DNA of 37,591 nucleotides, from positions 1 to 37,591 of IMG/VR virus record IMGVR_UViG_3300044616_000585; one strand, 5' to 3'. The notes beneath the pieces are model-generated. The model made no database searches, was not told where the DNA came from, and saw only the letters and a program-made list of their open reading frames with translations. Position numbers and translations under genes: made by a program. The stretch's first letter is position 1. Each line of letters starts with the position of its first letter. Shown piece by piece: positions 3,322 through 22,841 of the stretch. This DNA comes from a virus.

Positions 3322-6300
3322 TTAACCTCTCCTTGCATTACGGCGGCGATCTCTTTCGATTACGGCCTTGATTGAGTTATTATCGGCTACAAGCGCGCCG
3401 CTTATTTCTACATGAGTATTTCGGTTGATTTGCTTACCTAGCCCGCGCGTCTCTTCGCGAAGTTTCCTAACCTCTTGAATAAGATTGCCATCCTCTTGCA
3501 CTGAATAGCGAATTTGCGGAGCGTTTGAAGTAAAGTAATCACGAATACTCATACCGGGGTTATTATTCATCCATTCGAGCTCTTGGCGGTTTGCTTTCGT
3601 GCCCGCGGCTGTAATAACTGATTCGCCTTTCGATAGCCATGCTGGTATAGAGTCGCTTCTTTCATCGCCAGGGCCTTCGAGTCCTACGACGCCGTCTTTG
3701 AAGCCTAGCGCGCCTCTAGCGCTTGCTAAAAGAAGCTCAAGCCCTGCAGTTAGGGTAGCTGCAATAAGCGGACCTGCAATCGGTCCGAGTGTGGTGATTG
3801 AGCTTCCAAGAATACCGACAACAAAAGACGGTATCATCTTAGAGACGGCATCAAACGCCGCGCCCGCGGCTGCATTTCCAAAGTCTGCAAGTGTTGCTTT
3901 ACCTGAAGCTGCGAGCGTTCCAAATTGCTCTAAAGTCTGACCGACAAATTCATTAAATACTTTTTGATTGCCTTCCATGCCTTGAGCATTTTTCTTAAAT
4001 ATCTCGGATTGAGATTTTAGCACGCTCGCGGCTGCTTGATCGCCTGCAGTTTTGAGTCTTTGCAAGAAATTCACTTCGGTTTGCTCTTCGACTTGTTTTC
4101 TTTGCGCGTCAATATCTGCAATTTTGGCAGCATAATCTTCGAAGCTAATCTCTCTCTTTGCAAGGCTCTTAGTTAGATCGTCCTCTTCAGCATTGAGCGC
4201 TCCGAGGCGTTCCTCTCTTATGGCATCATTAGCCTCTTTTTCCTTTCTGATTTTCTCCGAGTTGAAGGCATCAAGAATGCTAGTTTGCAAAGCGGTTTGT
4301 ATTTGAAATTGCAATGTGGATTCGAGAGCCGCTTTTTCGATTGCCGCCTTGCTTTCAGTTCCGAACCTGTCCAGTCGAGAACTTAGCAAATTGATATTCT
4401 GCACATTCTTTTGGATTGATTCCCCAAACTTTGCAGCCGCTTCTTCATTACCCGCCGCCAAAGCCTCTGCTTGTTTGAGTGCAATTTCGTCATTCTGAAG
4501 CTTTATGAATTCGATATATTGCTGAACCGTAGCAATAGTCCCATCAAGCGCCTCTTGACTCGTAGCGAGGGTTTTAGGCACTAAAGACTCGCTTGTTTTT
4601 TCTATCTCTTTTGCAAGGTCTGTATATTCTTTTAAAAACTCTTTGAAGTCTTCAGGATTAGCCTTAATTCCAGTTTCTATTTTTAGTTCTGGATCTTTGG
4701 TAATCTTAGCAACTTCTTCTTTTGCCCCTTTTTTTGTTTCAGCGGTTGCTTTTGGTTTTATTGATATCGTGCTTGTATTTTGTTGTTGTATTTTCTTTAT
4801 TTCTTCGCTTGTCTTTTTTGCTTCATCACTTGTACCTTTTAATTCCGCTTTAACAGTCCTTACATTTTTTACAAGTGATTCTATCCATGTTTGTTTGCTA
4901 AAAACTGAGGACAATTTGTCATAAGCACCTGAAAAGTCTAGATTTTTTGCTGATTCGAATGCCTCACCTAAGATTCTAAATATATCTTGAAAAGTCATAC
5001 CAAATGCTTTAAGATATACCTGAACTTCATCGATAACTTGAGGCAAATTTGCAAAGAAATTATAGACTTTATCAAATCCAGATTTTAAGGCTTCAAATAC
5101 CGAAGTGACTCCTGGTATTTTTGCAATTAAATTTCCAATCCATGTAATAAATGTTGTAATTCCTTCAACTACTAAAGTAATAGCTCCAATAACAAGCTTA
5201 AATCCATAAACAATAACATCTATTAAGATTTTACCAAGAAATTGAAGCACGTCAAACACCGCGCTTATCGCACCACTCATGAAATTCATGGCTTCTTGTA
5301 GCATTTCAACTACATCTATACCCTCTCCCATAGCTCCATCAAGACCAAGAGCTGACTTGATTGCATCTATGAGAGGTTGTACGGCAAGAATGACTTGATC
5401 GAATGCGTATGAGGCTGTTTCATAGAATAAGTTAACTATTTCTAATGCAGTAGTAAGTATATTGCTTATGTTTGTCATTATAGCGCCACCAATAAGACCA
5501 AGAATAGGCCCTATGTATGTCCACATCCTCTCAAATACACCGCTAATAGTATTGCCAAGCTCACTCATAGTTGGCCCTACGGCCTCTGCAATCATGCCAA
5601 AAGTCTGAGATAAGCCTCCAACAACAAGCGCACTGCCTTTTTCGAATGCAAGTGACAAGTTACGACCAACTACATCAAAACTAAGATACTGACCCGCAGC
5701 ATTCATAGCATCTTGACCCGCTTGCGCCGCTTTCTTCTTGATTTCTTCAGTTGGTATTGGAGCGCCGAACATTTTATTATATGCTTCGACTCCAATATCT
5801 TCGGCGGGCGTTCCGGCGACTGCTACTTGTAATTGAGTAGCCATCGCTTCGGAGATTTGACCTGCATCAAAAGCCGTTTTGATTGATTCCCCTGACTTTT
5901 GCAAGAATTCTTTGATTGTGATTTGGCCACTAGATGCAAGTTGCTCAAGATTGCCAAGAGTTGAACCAAGCGCTTGAGGCAATTGGTTTTTAATATCAGT
6001 AAATGCCTTTGCAGTATCACCTGCTTTGAGTCTGATTTGAGCTTCTTTGATAGAGTCTGCAATCTTGTCGGTATTAAACAATCCCTCTTGCCCTGCGATT
6101 GCCATTTGACCCGCGAACTCTTCAGCGCTGAATCCTGCTTCACTTAGTAATTGCGAGTATTCGGCAAGCGTATCAAGTACATCGTCTTGCGAAGTCTTAC
6201 CCTCTTTTGCAGCGAATGCAATTAAGTCGAATGCTTCTTGACCATCAAGGCCAAACTGCTTAATAAACGGCGTTGACTTGGCAATGACTTCGTTAACATC

Positions 6301-6906
6301 CTTCTCATACAAATTACCAAGAGCTTGCGCGCCTTTTACGAATTCTCCGATTTGGTCGGTAGGCAAGGCATCCTTAAGTACTACCTTTGCATTGCTTATT
6401 ATTTTTGTAGCTTCGGCTACTGATTCACCAACCCCACCAAGAAACGCCTCATCGGCTGCATTTTTAAGTGCCTCAAATTCCGCGCCCGTAGCGCCTGTTT
6501 GAGCTTGCAAATCACCTTGCGCGGAAATAAGACCGCGACCAGCATCCATAACCGCTCCAAAGCCATCGACAATTGCACCGACTCCCGCTTGCACACCAGC
6601 GGCCAAGCCACCACCTACAAGCCCTCCAATCAAGCCACCGCTAAGAGCGTCACCTAGCCCGCCTTTTAAGCCTTCAAATACACCGCCAAGTCCACCTGCA
6701 GAATCACCAACGCCATCAATTGCCGCGGATAGCTTATTGACATCTGCGACCGCGCTCGAAGTATTTATATCCGCCATTTTATCAAGTGCTTGGTCGGTTT
6801 GCTTCGACTCATTTTGCACCTGATTAAGTTCGGTAGTGACTTTATTCAGACCGTTGAATAATTCGGCTGCATCCAGTCCAAGTTTGATTTTTATATCATC
6901 GGCCAT
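3322..6906 (-). CDS. Tail tape measure protein
   Basis: At 1194 residues this is the longest gene of the window, located between the tail-chaperone pair and the tail-tip genes, as in nearly all siphophages. The N terminus (about 1-60) is a coiled coil with LNKVTTELNQVQNESKQ. It is followed by a very Gly-rich hydrophobic region (about 65-115), several membrane-like hydrophobic helices (about 460-620), a Lys/Glu-rich linker (about 680-790), long helical segments with EKIRKEKEANDAIREE, and a final Gly/Ala-rich hydrophobic part near residues 1010-1070. The start overlaps the preceding gene by 11 bases and has GGAG upstream. By the usual rule of about 0.15 nm per residue the tail would be near 180 nm. 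The segment around 4600-5600 is visibly more AT-rich than the flanks, suggesting domain exchange. Confidence 0.93.
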   Translation of the reverse strand: MADDIKIKLGLDAAELFNGLNKVTTELNQVQNESKQTDQALDKMADINTSSAVADVNKLSAAIDGVGDSAGGLGGVFEGLKGGLGDALSGGLIGGLVGGGLAAGVQAGVGAIVDGFGAVMDAGRGLISAQGDLQAQTGATGAEFEALKNAADEAFLGGVGESVAEATKIISNAKVVLKDALPTDQIGEFVKGAQALGNLYEKDVNEVIAKSTPFIKQFGLDGQEAFDLIAFAAKEGKTSQDDVLDTLAEYSQLLSEAGFSAEEFAGQMAIAGQEGLFNTDKIADSIKEAQIRLKAGDTAKAFTDIKNQLPQALGSTLGNLEQLASSGQITIKEFLQKSGESIKTAFDAGQISEAMATQLQVAVAGTPAEDIGVEAYNKMFGAPIPTEEIKKKAAQAGQDAMNAAGQYLSFDVVGRNLSLAFEKGSALVVGGLSQTFGMIAEAVGPTMSELGNTISGVFERMWTYIGPILGLIGGAIMTNISNILTTALEIVNLFYETASYAFDQVILAVQPLIDAIKSALGLDGAMGEGIDVVEMLQEAMNFMSGAISAVFDVLQFLGKILIDVIVYGFKLVIGAITLVVEGITTFITWIGNLIAKIPGVTSVFEALKSGFDKVYNFFANLPQVIDEVQVYLKAFGMTFQDIFRILGEAFESAKNLDFSGAYDKLSSVFSKQTWIESLVKNVRTVKAELKGTSDEAKKTSEEIKKIQQQNTSTISIKPKATAETKKGAKEEVAKITKDPELKIETGIKANPEDFKEFLKEYTDLAKEIEKTSESLVPKTLATSQEALDGTIATVQQYIEFIKLQNDEIALKQAEALAAGNEEAAAKFGESIQKNVQNINLLSSRLDRFGTESKAAIEKAALESTLQFQIQTALQTSILDAFNSEKIRKEKEANDAIREERLGALNAEEDDLTKSLAKREISFEDYAAKIADIDAQRKQVEEQTEVNFLQRLKTAGDQAAASVLKSQSEIFKKNAQGMEGNQKVFNEFVGQTLEQFGTLAASGKATLADFGNAAAGAAFDAVSKMIPSFVVGILGSSITTLGPIAGPLIAATLTAGLELLLASARGALGFKDGVVGLEGPGDERSDSIPAWLSKGESVITAAGTKANRQELEWMNNNPGMSIRDYFTSNAPQIRYSVQEDGNLIQEVRKLREETRGLGKQINRNTHVEISGALVADNNSIKAVIERDRRRNARRG

Positions 6907-7192
6907 TGATTCTGCGCTCCATTTTGCGGCGTTCTTTGTGGTAAGTTATGGTATAGGCATAAGTACGGATTACATCCACTCGGGGCGTGTCGTAATATAG
7001 TCTTAGATACGCTGCAGGATCGCCGCCTGCAACGCCTTTGAATATCCAATATGAGCCTACAATTTCGCCAAGGTAATAAGCACTCTCATCTCCGTCCGTC
7101 TCTTCATACTCTTCATCGTCTGGATCGTTGAATACCGTCAAGTCCTCAAGATAATACTCACATAATGCGGACTCTTCGGCATACCGTTTCAC
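6896..7192 (-). CDS. Tail assembly chaperone extension (gpT-like), probably made by frameshift
   Basis: This is a 98-codon frame overlapping the end of the 165-residue gene by 35 bases and the tape-measure start by 11. It opens with a GTG (7192-7190) with no Shine-Dalgarno sequence, so independent initiation looks poor. The sequence is acidic (FNDPDDEEYEETDGDE) and then basic at its end. Just upstream the zero frame reads AAG TTT TTT CGT; moving the second Phe tRNA forward by one base gives TTT TTC GTG and enters this frame. A -1 slip would meet TGA at once. I therefore read it as the downstream part of a fused 252-residue tail chaperone made by +1 (or -2) frameshifting. The family is not recognised by sequence; the arrangement is the evidence. 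Confidence 0.7.
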   Translation of the reverse strand: MKRYAEESALCEYYLEDLTVFNDPDDEEYEETDGDESAYYLGEIVGSYWIFKGVAGGDPAAYLRLYYDTPRVDVIRTYAYTITYHKERRKMERRINGR

Positions 7193-7655
7193 GAAAAAAC
7201 TTTAGCGAGTCCAAAATACCGTCTAAGTCTTGGTTTTGCCAAAACTCGCTTGAAGGCTCGGACTGAATACCAGATAAAAGCTCCGTATTTTGCACTTTGC
7301 TTTCATCTATTACGGCTTTGACAAATTGGAATACTTTTGGTATGGTAGTTTCATCGACATTGATAAGCTCGAATAGATTTGCTCGGACTTTTAGATATGC
7401 AGTCTTTACAATTTCTTGGAACTCGAACTCTTGCATAATGTCTTTGAATGCGTCTTGCCCCTTTGTTAAGTCTATCTTTTTTGCAAGGCTCTCGCGGCTA
7501 AATACCTTCTCCATGATCTCGGTTTCGGCGGCTGCTTGAGCGCCTTTAGTATTTGCAAGTTCTGAGAGAAGCGGCGTAACCTTGTCATAAAGAGCGGGGG
7601 TCAGTTTTGAATAGAGAGCTACTTCGTGTGCTGTTTCGTTTAGATATAATTTCAT
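7158..7655 (-). CDS. Tail assembly chaperone (gpG-like)
   Basis: The protein has 165 residues, is mostly helical, and lies between the major tail protein and the tape measure. This is the position of lambda gpG and its analogues, which coat the tape measure before tube polymerisation. The ATG has GGAG 7 bases upstream. The protein contains VRANLFELINVDETTIPKVF and ends DSLKFFRETVCRRVRIM. The Phe-Phe-Arg codons at residues 153-155 (TTT TTT CGT, 7199-7191) form a candidate shift site into the overlapping frame that ends at 6896. Without shifting, only 11 further residues follow. Primary sequence is not diagnostic for this family, so the call rests on gene order, size and the overlapping second frame. 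Confidence 0.75.
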   Translation of the reverse strand: MKLYLNETAHEVALYSKLTPALYDKVTPLLSELANTKGAQAAAETEIMEKVFSRESLAKKIDLTKGQDAFKDIMQEFEFQEIVKTAYLKVRANLFELINVDETTIPKVFQFVKAVIDESKVQNTELLSGIQSEPSSEFWQNQDLDGILDSLKFFRETVCRRVRIM

Positions 7656-7706: not shown

Positions 7707-8246
7707 TTAAGGGGCTGTAAACCAGATCTCTTTGTAACCAATCTTTGCAGGGATTGTGACCGCAGTCGCACCGCTTACAAGAGTAGTTAAGAAGTAACTT
7801 GTCCCGATAACAAGATCAGTATCATTATTTACCACATCGCCGCCTACTTTTGGCTTAGTGTATTTTCCTGATTCTTGGTCAAAAGCACCAGCGTCTTGTG
7901 CTAATTTGCAAAGCATCAAAACAACCTTACGCTTGTTTAGAGTAGTATCAACACCACCGTACACGATTTGCAAAAGTGTATCGCTTGTCGCTTGAGAAGA
8001 GTTGAATTTTGTCCCGTCTTCGTATTCCCCTTGATCTGCAGTGACCGTTGTAATAGGTGCATAGTTTTCAAGGAATGAAGTAAGTTCCGGATTGTCTTCG
8101 TTTTGATCGATTGTAAAAGTTGTGCGTGTTAATGAAGTCTTGATCTTACGCTTCATTGTATGAATCGCGGTAGCTCCTACTGTAGGTGCTGTTCCGAGTT
8201 CATTTGCTGTATAGAATACGCTAAGGTTAGCGCCGCCTACTACCAT
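7707..8246 (-). CDS. Major tail tube protein
   Basis: The protein has 179 residues, with start ATG and AAGAGGT upstream. It is a beta-rich, Thr-rich protein with TMKRKIKTSLTRTTFTIDQNED near residue 30-50 and a hydrophobic, Gly-containing C-terminal half, in the position and size range of siphophage major tail (tube) proteins. It is followed directly by a strong terminator hairpin, which fits a gene needing high expression. The neighbours are consistent: tail completion upstream, tail chaperones and tape measure downstream. Sequence alone does not name the family, but the context leaves few alternatives. Confidence 0.8.
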   Translation of the reverse strand: MVVGGANLSVFYTANELGTAPTVGATAIHTMKRKIKTSLTRTTFTIDQNEDNPELTSFLENYAPITTVTADQGEYEDGTKFNSSQATSDTLLQIVYGGVDTTLNKRKVVLMLCKLAQDAGAFDQESGKYTKPKVGGDVVNNDTDLVIGTSYFLTTLVSGATAVTIPAKIGYKEIWFTAP

Positions 8247-8250
8247 GATA

Positions 8251-8946
8251 TTACCTCTTAGATAATTGTTTTAGATATGAAAATGTGTTGACTAAATAAT
8301 CCCAGTTTCTTTGTGATTTATCGCGTGTGTATTCTCTTACCATCAAGCCGCCGTTCCGTTCTGCTTTATGCATTAAGACTTCAGTGTCTTGGCTATATCC
8401 TTTGTGGTATAGCAATATGTCTGTATCAGCTACGACCGTACCATTCGGATCTACTTCGAGCGTCTCATGGCATATTCTTTGCCATTTGAGAAAAGCGCTT
8501 CGGCGGTGCAGTCGCATTGCCGGTATGTTATACCGCTTTCGTATGTGCGTATATTGCGGGTCAAGATCAGCATTGCACCCTGCAATTGACAAATAAGCTG
8601 CGACCGCTTCGCTTTCGTTAAGCTCTTGAATATAAACCCAAAACTCATCTTCAGGACTTGCAAGGCGCTCGTCTGAATCCATGTGCAAAATCCAGTCACC
8701 AGTCGCATATTCATCGAGCTTATTTCTGCAATAACTGAAGTCGAAATACTCTTCGAAGTCTGGATATTCCCATGAGAGAACTATATGGTCATCAATGCGA
8801 CCGACTTCTTGAAAAACAGGCTCTTTCAGTTTCGGATTTACCGCCGTGCGAAGTGCAATGACTTCGACATTATCACTGGGCAAAGAATCCCTCCATCCTT
8901 TCAGGTCATCTCCATCCTGAAAGATTACACATGCACTTAACTTCAT
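8251..8946 (-). CDS. GT2-family glycosyltransferase (WaaE-like)
   Basis: The protein has 231 residues. Its ATG overlaps the previous stop (ATGA) and has AGAGGAG upstream. The N terminus (MKLSACVIFQDGDDL) is the first beta strand of a GT-A fold. The pattern FDFSYCRNKLDEYATGDW at residues 69-85, followed by ILHMDSDERL with the metal-binding D-S-D at 90-92, matches GT2 enzymes of the WaaE/LPS-core type, where a Phe/Asp-x-x-RN motif precedes the D-x-D. There is no membrane segment or signal peptide, so it acts in the cytoplasm. It sits inside the tail module between tail completion and tail tube genes, so it is made with the virion proteins. Possible substrates are virion proteins or a host surface-glycan precursor; neither is shown by the sequence. 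Confidence 0.85.
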   Translation of the reverse strand: MKLSACVIFQDGDDLKGWRDSLPSDNVEVIALRTAVNPKLKEPVFQEVGRIDDHIVLSWEYPDFEEYFDFSYCRNKLDEYATGDWILHMDSDERLASPEDEFWVYIQELNESEAVAAYLSIAGCNADLDPQYTHIRKRYNIPAMRLHRRSAFLKWQRICHETLEVDPNGTVVADTDILLYHKGYSQDTEVLMHKAERNGGLMVREYTRDKSQRNWDYLVNTFSYLKQLSKR

Positions 8947-10717: not shown

Positions 10718-11902
10718 TTAGGTTGTTGAAGTTTTGAGAACACCGATAGCACTTGGAGCTGGGAATGCGAAAGCAACGCGCTCGACAACTTCGATACCTT
10801 TTTGGTGAGTACCACCCAAACCAGTCGCGCCGAAATACTCTTTGTATTCGTTAACAGTTACATCCTCGCGGATACCCATAACTGTAAACTGATTAAAGTC
10901 ACAATAGAATGCAGATGCTGTATTCGCTGCACTCGTTGGGAAGAGTGCATCAGGTACGACATGCATCGGGCGGCCTGTTGGAGTGAAGTATGAATTACCT
11001 GCAAGAGCTGTTAAGCCGATGGATGTAATTTCGATAGGTCTTACTTGATCATAAACAGGGCGGGAGCCTGCTGTTTCTTTCATCAAGAATCCGAATACTG
11101 ATTGAGGCACTACGAATACACCATTAGCACCAACGCCAGAATTTACACCGAGGCGCAAGTTCCAAAGGTCAGTCCAAGAGATCTCTCCGAATGTATCCTT
11201 ACCTGAGTTATTTGCACCACCTTGGCGAACTGTTGTAGTTCCGGCGATACCAGTCAAGCCTGTAAAGTTAGGGGCATTACCATCACCATTGAAAAACTGC
11301 TTGTCTTCTGTTTCAGCAAGAGCGCGACCCAATCCATTTACAACATAATCCAAGAATGCAGGGGTTGCATCTTGCAATTGCTCTTCAGAAACGATAGCAC
11401 CTGCAACTACTTTGCGGGCTGTCATTGCAGTCGCTGTAAAGAAGTTTGCTGAGTCAGTCAAAGTCAAGCCAGAACCTTCGGCAACTACCGCGCCAGTGAA
11501 CGCGCCGCTTGATACTAAGTTCTCTGTTTTACCGCGCATCGGATAGATCTTCGCGAGTGCTCTTGCATATCCGTACTGATCTGCAAAAGACATGATTTCC
11601 TCTACCCAAAACTGAGGAACGGCCGCGCCACCTTGTGCAGTTGTGCCTGTATTGAAGTTTGCTCTTGTGAGATACTTCTCATTTGCTTTGCGTGCAATTT
11701 CATCTGCAACGCCGTCGCGTCCTTTGTGAACTGCAAGGATGTAATCAGCTACGACGCGTGCTTGGTCACGGCGTGCATCATGATCTGCTTTGATTGTTAC
11801 GAAGCCGTTGTTATTTGTTGGCTTTTGTGAGCGAAGTTGATCAGCTACTTTGCGGTCAACAACTTCTTTCAGTTGGTCTTTTGTCACGATAATGTTTTCC
11901 AT
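10718..11902 (-). CDS. Major capsid protein, HK97 fold
   Basis: The protein has 394 residues. The N-terminal helical part (about 1-95) contains KDQLKEVVDRKVADQLRSQ and a run of charged residues. The body starts with TGTTAQGGAAVPQFWVEEIM, the typical beginning of the mature HK97-family capsid (G-x-x-VP...). It continues with ARALAKIYPMRG, ARKVVAGAIVSEEQLQDA and NGLGRALAETEDKQFFNGDG, in which the pattern of an E-loop or spine helix followed by D..F.NGDG is diagnostic for phage major capsid proteins. It lies after the protease/scaffold gene, as usual. The N-terminal segment may be the part removed by the protease; the cut site cannot be located from sequence. AAGGA lies about 9 bases before the ATG. 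Confidence 0.95.
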   Translation of the reverse strand: MENIIVTKDQLKEVVDRKVADQLRSQKPTNNNGFVTIKADHDARRDQARVVADYILAVHKGRDGVADEIARKANEKYLTRANFNTGTTAQGGAAVPQFWVEEIMSFADQYGYARALAKIYPMRGKTENLVSSGAFTGAVVAEGSGLTLTDSANFFTATAMTARKVVAGAIVSEEQLQDATPAFLDYVVNGLGRALAETEDKQFFNGDGNAPNFTGLTGIAGTTTVRQGGANNSGKDTFGEISWTDLWNLRLGVNSGVGANGVFVVPQSVFGFLMKETAGSRPVYDQVRPIEITSIGLTALAGNSYFTPTGRPMHVVPDALFPTSAANTASAFYCDFNQFTVMGIREDVTVNEYKEYFGATGLGGTHQKGIEVVERVAFAFPAPSAIGVLKTSTT

Positions 11903-21610: not shown

Positions 21611-22246
21611 CTAAATAGAAACTAAAATACGCCTAAGCTGTGGATTAAATCGCTTAGACTCTAGTATTGTATATTGCGTTGTTTTAATTCCGCTCTTGGC
21701 TTCAGTATCCAAAAGCGAAGCCTGAAACTTAGTCCAGTTTTCCTCTTGCCATTTGTCATAGTTCTCACGGTCATGATCATCACTGTAGAACCAGCCCTCC
21801 CTTCTTGCAAAGCCTGTCAATACGCATCTCCAATATAGATCGTCATCGTCTACAGCCCAACCCCAGTATTCATTGGAGTAGCCGTTTATTTTGCGGTATG
21901 ACTCTTTGTCAAATAGCGTCACTCCACCAAAGTAAGCACGGTAAGGCATATCCCAGTCGTATTGCTCTACATACCTTGCCAAGTGAGTCGGCGTAAAGAC
22001 TGGTGAATAGTCCGCATCTTTTGCGTACATATCCACATCGTGAAAGCAAAAGTAATCAGCATGCTGAGACTCTAGGAATCCGATGTTCTTCATCATGCCG
22101 GTATTAAACAGCTTGCCCTCTTCTTGCTCTACAATCGTTATGCCAAACTCTAAGCCTTGAGCCTCAAGCGTCTTGAATAAGTGAGGCACTTGTTTACGGA
22201 TGTGAGCCTCGCGGTTCCGATAGGGAATAATTACTTCAAGTCTCAT
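21611..22246 (-). CDS. GT7-family glycosyltransferase (beta-1,4-galactosyltransferase-like)
   Basis: The protein has 211 residues. The motif series of family GT7 is present in order: VIIPYRNREAHI (5-16), LFNTGMMKNIGF (46-57), CFHDVDMY with the D-V-D metal site (70-72), YFGGVTLFD (105-113), and INGYSNEYWGWAVDDDDLYWR (120-140, the acceptor/donor loop, with D in place of the usual E in the G-x-E-D-D-D run). It lacks the membrane anchor of animal relatives, so it is cytoplasmic. The likely donor is UDP-Gal or UDP-GalNAc by family analogy. GGAG lies upstream. It overlaps the GT25-like gene by 11 bases, so the two should be made together and may act on the same glycan. Confidence 0.88.
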   Translation of the reverse strand: MRLEVIIPYRNREAHIRKQVPHLFKTLEAQGLEFGITIVEQEEGKLFNTGMMKNIGFLESQHADYFCFHDVDMYAKDADYSPVFTPTHLARYVEQYDWDMPYRAYFGGVTLFDKESYRKINGYSNEYWGWAVDDDDLYWRCVLTGFARREGWFYSDDHDRENYDKWQEENWTKFQASLLDTEAKSGIKTTQYTILESKRFNPQLRRILVSI

Positions 22247-22841
22247 GTAATTCTCCGCTTGTTAGTGATTCCCATTTGTTAAGCGAATATCTTGCATTCG
22301 ACTGTATGAAGTACGGCTTGCGAACTGCATAGACATTAAAGTTCTCTTGAATATGTCCAAGCATGACATCAAGTGGAACTTGCTCTTCGTAAATTGCTAC
22401 TCTGATTGCATTCTCTGCATAGGCTTTGAATCTTGGACTAAGATATAGTATAGCATGCGCCGCCGCTAAGCCTGTAACCTTTACCAAATTCTCACTAAAG
22501 GCCTTGACCGTAGTCTTCGGATTAGCATGACTCCAACCAAGGTAAATAGCATCCGCGCCGTGTGGAATATCTATCTCTTCGCAGTAGTGTTCAGTCACTT
22601 GAGCGTCATCCTCGAATATCAGCAAGGGTGCATCGCCTGACTGCAATGCATCTATGTGAGATTGTCCACATCCGACAAAGTGCTTATCAAAGCGCGTGTC
22701 TTGAGGAGGCGGTATAGTCTTTGCGCTTATCCTTCTAGTCTTATTCATACCAAGCATTCCAAACTGACGCTCCATCTCTATCCGATTGCTAAGAGCCGTA
22801 TCTAAGTTGATATACCTAACCTCGCACTCGGATAGTCTCAT
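22236..22841 (-). CDS. GT25-like glycosyltransferase (LPS-glycosyltransferase family)
   Basis: The protein has 201 residues. The N terminus VRYINLDTALSNRIEMERQF matches the typical GT25 opening (Y-INL-x-x-x-x-R-x-x-x-M). It is followed by RRISAKTI, GCGQSHIDAL (57-66, the conserved GC..SH) and APLLIFEDDA (71-80) with the metal-binding EDD. Family members add sugars to lipo-oligosaccharide or to collagen-type proteins. There is no membrane helix or signal peptide. The start overlaps the previous gene (ATGA) with GGAG upstream. Together with the adjacent GT7-like enzyme it forms a two-gene glycan module just before the lysis cassette. Confidence 0.87.
   Translation of the reverse strand: MRLSECEVRYINLDTALSNRIEMERQFGMLGMNKTRRISAKTIPPPQDTRFDKHFVGCGQSHIDALQSGDAPLLIFEDDAQVTEHYCEEIDIPHGADAIYLGWSHANPKTTVKAFSENLVKVTGLAAAHAILYLSPRFKAYAENAIRVAIYEEQVPLDVMLGHIQENFNVYAVRKPYFIQSNARYSLNKWESLTSGELHET

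What the first reader, a model, noticed from the sequence alone, without database searches (positions are those of the whole stretch)
7150..7215. Candidate +1 (or -2) programmed frameshift in the tail assembly chaperone pair
The gpG-like frame reads AAG TTT TTT CGT and then ends after 11 more residues, while the overlapping frame from 7192 to 6896 begins with GTG directly after TTT TTC and lacks a ribosome site. A -1 shift, the usual lambda solution, would stop at TGA immediately. A +1 slip of Phe-tRNA from TTT to TTC (its better-matched codon) or a -2 slip on the T6 run would fuse the frames into 252 residues.
Basis: partly seen in the sequence, partly recalled or inferred. Interest (0 to 1): 0.65.

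Follow-up and report, generated by a model that had tools for sequence, protein, structure and literature searches.

The report
Invariant frameshift site in phage tail genes
A group of uncultured bacterial viruses appears to join two tail-building proteins by making the ribosome change reading frame at the sequence TTTTTTCG, which is unchanged in every relative examined; such frame changes in tail genes are known, but this site differs from the usual one and resembles sites known from influenza virus and from phage Mu.

Summary
On the minus strand the gpG-like ORF (7655-7158) reads AAG TTT TTT CGT and stops 11 codons later. A second ORF (T, to 6896) lies in the +1 frame, closed by TAA 2 nt before the T-run and without a ribosome site. 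Relatives turn the guess into a strong case. In 72 of 72 distinct G/T junctions TTTTTTCG is present, in the same phase, and T is always in the +1 frame. It is the only 8-nt window of 753 with no change over the tree. GTG is lost in 25 of 72 while the slip site stays; 7 of 72 have no start codon at all. Both frames are constrained across the overlap. No conserved RNA structure follows. I conclude: a programmed frameshift makes a tail assembly chaperone GT fusion. Direction is unresolved. The site is at once the +1 motif UUU_CGN (influenza PA-X, amalgaviruses) and the XX_XXX_CGN layout of phage Mu's -2 site, which I find in 8 of 8 Mu-family loci examined. I rate +1 about 0.5, -2 about 0.4. Lambda's -1 heptamer does not apply. 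A new variant of a known kind.

The parts
7158..7655 (-). G ORF: gpG-like tail assembly chaperone, 165 aa, zero-frame product
   Evidence: ORF with GGAG before its ATG; between the probable tail tube gene and the tape measure gene; all relatives keep it
7191..7199 (-). Slip site TTT TTT CGT (T6 = 7199-7194, A-site CGT = 7193-7191)
   Evidence: TTTTTTCG in 72 of 72 distinct junctions, same phase; zero changes on the tree
6896..7201 (-). T frame (+1 or -2 relative to G): open from AGT at 7201 to the stop at 6898-6896; the conserved part begins at TTC 7195
   Evidence: codon-position bias of changes 4.1/2.8/11.1
7202..7204 (-). TAA stop of the T frame, 2 nt upstream of the T6 run
   Evidence: sequence; the same arrangement in 32 of 72 junctions
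7158..7160 (-). TGA stop of G, 13 codons after the start of T6
   Evidence: 13 codons in 58 of 72, 14 in 13, 18 in 1
7210..7212 (-). GGA, candidate weak Shine-Dalgarno-like stimulator 10 nt before T6
   Evidence: GGA in 63 of 71; wobble of Leu148 (alignment column 152) changed 3 times against 9-16 in eight other conserved Leu columns
6896..7655 (-). Predicted GT fusion (252 aa if +1, 253 if -2)
7707..8246 (-). Probable major tail (tube) protein
   Evidence: position; conserved in the family; no family hit at E<=0.05
3322..6906 (-). Tape measure protein
   Evidence: phrog_58 and others, E 1e-18
10718..11902 (-). Major capsid protein (HK97 type)
   Evidence: PF05065, E 5e-20

Best explanation
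G and T are the two parts of a siphophage tail assembly chaperone. Most ribosomes translate G (165 aa) and stop at 7160-7158. A minority reach TTT TTT CGT with tRNA-Phe in the P site on the second TTT and an arginine codon CGN waiting in the A site; they slip into the +1 frame there and make the GT fusion. Shown by comparative sequence: the frame relation, the site, and that T cannot rely on its own start. Inferred: that the product is a chaperone binding the tape measure (G part) and the tail tube (T part), and the ratio. On the route I commit, with little margin, to a +1 slip of tRNA-Phe from UUU to UUC, a better match for its GAA anticodon (about 0.5), against a -2 slip on the T-run as in phage Mu (about 0.4). 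No downstream RNA structure seems to be needed. The confidence given is for a programmed shift into the +1 frame at this site, by whichever route.
For: Site: 72 of 72 distinct junctions and 381 of 381 redundant loci have TTTTTTCG just before G's stop, in phase TTT_TTT_CG in the 72, with T always +1. Fusion proteins go down to 33% identity; 29 clusters at 95%, 12 at 70% (71 sequences). Ascertainment does not depend on G/T: all 67 loci found by the tail tube protein and all 37 found by the capsid that have room downstream carry G. Both slip Phe codons changed 0 times, ten other conserved Phe columns 3-14 times. The 8-nt window TTTTTTCG is the only one of 753 with 0 changes (mean 46.7). No independent start: 25 of 72 lost GTG, 7 of 72 have no start codon. 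T-frame stop 2 nt before T6 in 32 of 72. Wobble bases of G inside the overlap change half as often as elsewhere (5.5 against 11.5), so T is read before G's stop. No 3' structure: 0 consensus pairs over 23 diverse sequences, T wobble changes back to normal just after G's stop. For +1: UUU_CGU is the mass-spectrometry-proven +1 site of influenza PA-X (PMC3498833), UUU_CGN is prevalent in amalgaviruses (PMC5052127), UUU_Ynn is called especially prone to +1 shifts in bacteria (PMC5009743).
Against: No protein or RNA data. For +1 alone the first TTT need not be TTT, yet it never becomes TTC; this fits -2 directly and needs an E-site effect under +1. The weak GGA lies at a distance that, as I recall for dnaX and prfB, favours backward shifts. 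CGT is not clearly starved: 50 of 477 Arg codons in the window, host unknown. TTT_CGN is not avoided over all pairs in 482 ORFs (odds ratio 0.93, P 0.81, slip sites included). G and T have no detectable sequence relation to lambda G/T, nor G to Mu gp41, so the chaperone role rests on position and architecture.
Confidence: 0.93

Rival explanations
1. The shift is -2, as in phage Mu: tRNA-Phe in the P site slides back two bases on the T-run (7196-7194 to 7198-7196), re-pairs with UUU, and reads TTC next, giving FFF-V.
For: A -2 slip needs the last two bases of the first Phe codon to be T: its wobble never changed in 71 sequences. The Mu record notes a verified -2 shift, and I find [CA]GG_GGG_CGA in 8 of 8 Mu-family loci: XX_XXX_CGN, the same layout. 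GGA 10 nt upstream conserved in 63 of 71.
Against: -2 shifts are rare; +1 re-pairing UUU to UUC is stronger and documented at UUU_CGU. An E-site effect is known at +1 sites (UCC in PA-X). The GGA signal is not unique: codon-shuffle windows at columns 141-144 score higher.
Confidence: 0.4
2. Transcriptional slippage on T6 yields some mRNAs with U5 (or U8), which fuse the frames.
For: The run is uninterrupted and invariant; deletion of one U gives the right frame.
Against: T6 is below the run length reported for such slippage in bacteria (Tn, n > 8; PMC3711429). The run is exactly six in all 72, because the base before it is A, G or C. The direction is the same in 72 of 72, whereas families with slippage mix directions (same paper).
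Confidence: 0.04
3. T is translated on its own, from GTG 7192 or by reinitiation near G's stop.
For: GTG in 47 of 72; T is under purifying selection.
Against: GTG lost in 25 of 72, no start codon in 7 of 72, no ribosome site, TTTTTTCG kept regardless.
Confidence: 0.03
4. The pair is a frame-disrupted gene or a sequencing artefact.
For: Such overlaps can arise from an indel in a homopolymer.
Against: The same frame relation in 72 distinct junctions from many metagenomes, with both frames under selection.
Confidence: 0.005

Closest known systems
Phage lambda G / GT tail assembly chaperone (programmed -1 frameshift)
   Same: Gene order tail tube, G, T, tape measure; T overlaps G and is reached by a shift near G's end (lambda layout seen; review PMC5009743, passages).
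   Different: Frame is +1/-2, not -1; no X_XXY_YYZ use; T is 98 aa against 144; no detectable homology.
Phage Mu gp41 frameshift (-2), Mu-family chaperones
   Same: XX_XXX_CGN site and the same frame relation: [CA]GG_GGG_CGA in 8 of 8 loci.
   Different: Run of G, not T; Mu is a myophage; no detectable homology to gp41.
UUU_CGN +1 frameshift class (influenza A PA-X, amalgaviruses, fijiviruses, chronic bee paralysis virus)
   Same: Zero-frame UUU followed by CGN and second ORF in the +1 frame (PMC3498833 section 4, part 1; PMC5052127 passages); [quoted passage not shown]
   Different: Those are eukaryotic RNA viruses; here a bacterial virus, a tail gene, and an invariant UUU in the E site.
+1 frameshifts annotated in actinophage tail chaperones (e.g. 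Fruitloop, Maravista)
   Same: Tail chaperone reached in the +1 frame.
   Different: Fruitloop shows no TTTTTTCG at the end of G; its site is not evident in its 257-nt overlap.

Membership tests
Siphophage tail assembly chaperone made by programmed frameshift | Two overlapping ORFs between the major tail protein and the tape measure gene | tested here: met
Siphophage tail assembly chaperone made by programmed frameshift | Second ORF lacks a usable start of its own | tested here: met
Siphophage tail assembly chaperone made by programmed frameshift | Conserved slippery site in the overlap | tested here: met
   72 of 72
Siphophage tail assembly chaperone made by programmed frameshift | Sequence or fold relation to a known chaperone | tested here: inconclusive
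   No relation to lambda G/T, nor of G to Mu gp41; G model (pLDDT 94.7) matches only two unnamed phage proteins at E about 1e-4; named chaperones appear only at E above 1
Siphophage tail assembly chaperone made by programmed frameshift | G binds the tape measure, GT recruits tube protein, both absent from the virion | not testable with these tools
   -
Lambda-type -1 frameshift | X_XXY_YYZ heptamer and second ORF in the -1 frame | tested here: not met
   T is +1 in 72 of 72; the -1 frame closes after 1 codon in 45 of 72, at most 38
UUU_CGN +1 class | Zero-frame UUU followed by CGN, downstream ORF in +1 | tested here: met
   CGT 70, CGC 2 of 72
UUU_CGN +1 class | Junction peptide proving +1 | not testable with these tools
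   -
Mu-type -2 frameshift | Five like bases ending in the P-site codon, then CGN | tested here: met
   TT_TTT_CG in 72 of 72, GG_GGG_CGA in 8 of 8 Mu-family loci
Mu-type -2 frameshift | Junction peptide proving -2 | not testable with these tools
   -

The most novel reading that the evidence does not exclude
There is one bacterial recoding element, XX_XXX_CGN, in which a homopolymer P-site codon preceded by two like bases slips into the +1/-2 frame while a CGN arginine codon waits in the A site, without RNA structure. It evolved separately in the Mu family (G-run) and in this uncultivated siphophage family (T-run), and the influenza-type UUU_CGN site is its +1-biased form in eukaryotes.
Probability: 0.3. 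Interest if true: 0.65.

Novelty: new variant of a known kind. Interest (0 to 1): 0.5.

Why it matters
It gives a clean natural test of +1 against -2 recoding: one invariant 8-nt site, no detectable RNA structure, a product whose two routes differ by one phenylalanine. It also links a slip motif known from eukaryotic viruses to a phage gene and suggests that CGN in the A site is a shared stimulator. For annotation, it says that T of this family should be joined to G and not called from GTG.

Tried and rejected
Lambda-type -1 shift: rejected, the frame is wrong and the -1 frame is closed. Conserved 3' hairpin or pseudoknot: none found (0 pairs; z from -2.8 to +1.2 over 7 sequences, not shared; both programs predict nested pairs only, so a pseudoknot is not excluded). 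A strong Shine-Dalgarno stimulator: only a GGA; the codon-shuffle test (0 of 200 shuffles reached the observed mean) is weakened because windows further upstream score better. Avoidance of TTT_CGN elsewhere: no overall signal (odds ratio 0.93). By arithmetic on that call, leaving out its 36 TTT_TTT_CGN triplets gives 43 TTT to 44 TTC before CGN against 129 to 67 before AGR, suggestive but other NNT/NNC pairs vary as much.

Host: not found. No relatives of G or capsid in genome contigs, none of G in the phages collection, no tRNA in the window. Family libraries: no named hit for G or T. Structure: no informative PDB match for G; the model of T is only moderate (pLDDT 74.1) and was not searched.

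Limits of the counts: one search kept the best 80 of 100 relatives and the best 80 of 120, so 20 and 40 were not examined. Of 80 tail-tube loci 67 and of 80 capsid loci 37 had room downstream. Contigs that end inside G or T were dropped. One of the 72 junctions was dropped from the tree analyses (71 used). The phylogeny is a FastTree tree of the G and T codon alignments, and changes were counted by parsimony. Papers: PMC3498833 outline, abstract and the first of two parts of section 4 read; PMC5009743, PMC10885494, PMC3711429, PMC5052127, PMC6856279, PMC11256854 and PMC12859696 passages only; Xu et al. 2004 not read (known from the review passage and the Mu record note); Schwartz and Curran 1997 on UUU-pyrimidine sites recalled, not held. 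That UUU_CGN has not been reported for phage tail genes rests on searches in an open-licence library only.

Full report
What is there. On the minus strand the window has a standard siphophage order: capsid (10718-11902), connectors, probable tail tube (7707-8246), G (7655-7158), T (to 6896), tape measure (6906-3322). G reads ...GAC TCG CTA AAG TTT TTT CGT GAA ACG GTA TGC CGA AGA GTC CGC ATT ATG TGA. The T frame reads TAA AGT TTT TTC GTG AAA CGG TAT GCC.... So T is closed by TAA just before the run and has only GTG at 7192 as a possible start near its beginning, with no ribosome site. The -1 frame ends at TGA. A shift into +1 gives 252 residues.

Relatives. Scans with G, with T, with the tail tube protein and with the capsid brought IMG/VR contigs whose GT proteins go down to 33% identity between members. 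Among all loci I counted 72 distinct junctions. In 72 of 72 T is offset +1 and TTTTTTCG stands in phase TTT_TTT_CG. The codon before is AAG 42, AAA 28, GAG 1, CGC 1. The A-site codon is CGT 70, CGC 2. The T-frame codon after TTC is GTG 47, GTT 14, GTC 6, GTA 3, GCG 2. G's stop follows 13 (58), 14 (13) or 18 (1) codons from the start of T6. In redundant form, 381 of 381 loci have the site, and every tube-found locus (67 of 67) and capsid-found locus (37 of 37) with room downstream carries G, so the result is not made by searching with G or T.

Selection on nucleotides. Over a tree of 71 sequences the two Phe codons of the slip site never changed, while ten other conserved Phe columns changed 3 to 14 times between TTT and TTC. 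Of 753 windows of eight nucleotides along G and T, TTTTTTCG is the only one with no change; the mean is 46.7. Outside the overlap T shows the codon-position pattern of a protein gene (4.1, 2.8, 11.1 changes for positions 1, 2, 3). Inside the overlap the wobble bases of G change half as often as elsewhere (5.5 against 11.5), as expected if T is read there too.

T is not started on its own. The GTG is gone in 25 of 72 junctions, and 7 of 72 have no ATG, GTG or TTG from the T-frame stop to codon +11, yet TTTTTTCG stays. In 32 of 72 the T-frame stop lies 2 nt before the run, so ribosomes must enter T at or just after the run.

Stimulators. No consensus structure follows the site, single folds are not shared, and T wobble changes return to normal right after G's stop. 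Upstream, GGA 10 nt before the run is present in 63 of 71, and the wobble base involved changed 3 times against 9-16 in eight other conserved Leu columns. This may be a weak Shine-Dalgarno-like element, but a sliding codon-shuffle test also marks other nearby windows.

Direction. Two known precedents fit the same letters. (1) UUU_CGU is the influenza PA-X site, shown by mass spectrometry to be +1, with an E-site effect (PMC3498833); UUU_CGN is prevalent in amalgaviruses (PMC5052127); UUU_Ynn is called especially prone to +1 in bacteria (PMC5009743). (2) Phage Mu's chaperone, recorded as a verified -2 shift, has CGG_GGG_CGA in its overlap. I looked at eight Mu-family loci and all have [CA]GG_GGG_CGA in the frame-0 phase: two like bases, a homopolymer codon, then CGN. 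That this is the slip position in Mu is my reading of the sequence; the record gives only the direction. In Mu the C could be A without changing Arg or Gly, yet it is kept in 8 of 8, which points to the A-site codon itself. The invariant first TTT is what -2 demands; under +1 it needs an E-site effect, UUU being the weaker Phe codon there. I therefore give +1 about 0.5 and -2 about 0.4, the rest to other routes. Transcriptional slippage is unlikely at six T with a constant direction.

Function. The chaperone role follows from position, overlap and frameshift, as in lambda (PMC5009743 passages), not from homology: G and T show no relation to lambda G/T, nor G to Mu gp41, and have no named family. 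G folds confidently as a mostly helical protein with a short N-terminal hairpin (pLDDT 94.7) and matches two unnamed phage proteins. In lambda terms, G would coat the tape measure protein and the rarer GT would recruit tube protein; that is inference.

Verdict. Frameshifting in tail chaperones is known, also into this frame; the invariant TTT_TTT_CGN site in a large uncultivated family and its match to both the influenza and the Mu layouts are, as far as searches show, not described.

Noticed in passing
L439 (Mu) and L440-L446, end of gp41-like ORFs: All eight Mu-family loci examined keep [CA]GG_GGG_CGA although the C of CGA could be A without changing either protein; the A-site CGA may be selected.
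   Followed up: partly
window 7210-7212: GGA 10 nt before the slip site is conserved at a synonymous position in 63 of 71 relatives.
   Followed up: partly
window 8251-8946, 21611-22246, 22236-22841: ORFs that look, by eye, like glycosyltransferases; the first sits between connector and tail tube genes and is kept in the family. Not searched in families.
   Followed up: no
L440-L445: In the annotated records of six Mu-like phages the chaperone is given as the short G-like product only; the fused product is annotated for Mu itself.
   Followed up: no
Viral-contig collection: The family is common in IMG/VR but no relative was found with G and capsid patterns in about 85,000 species genomes, so its host group is unknown.
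   Followed up: partly
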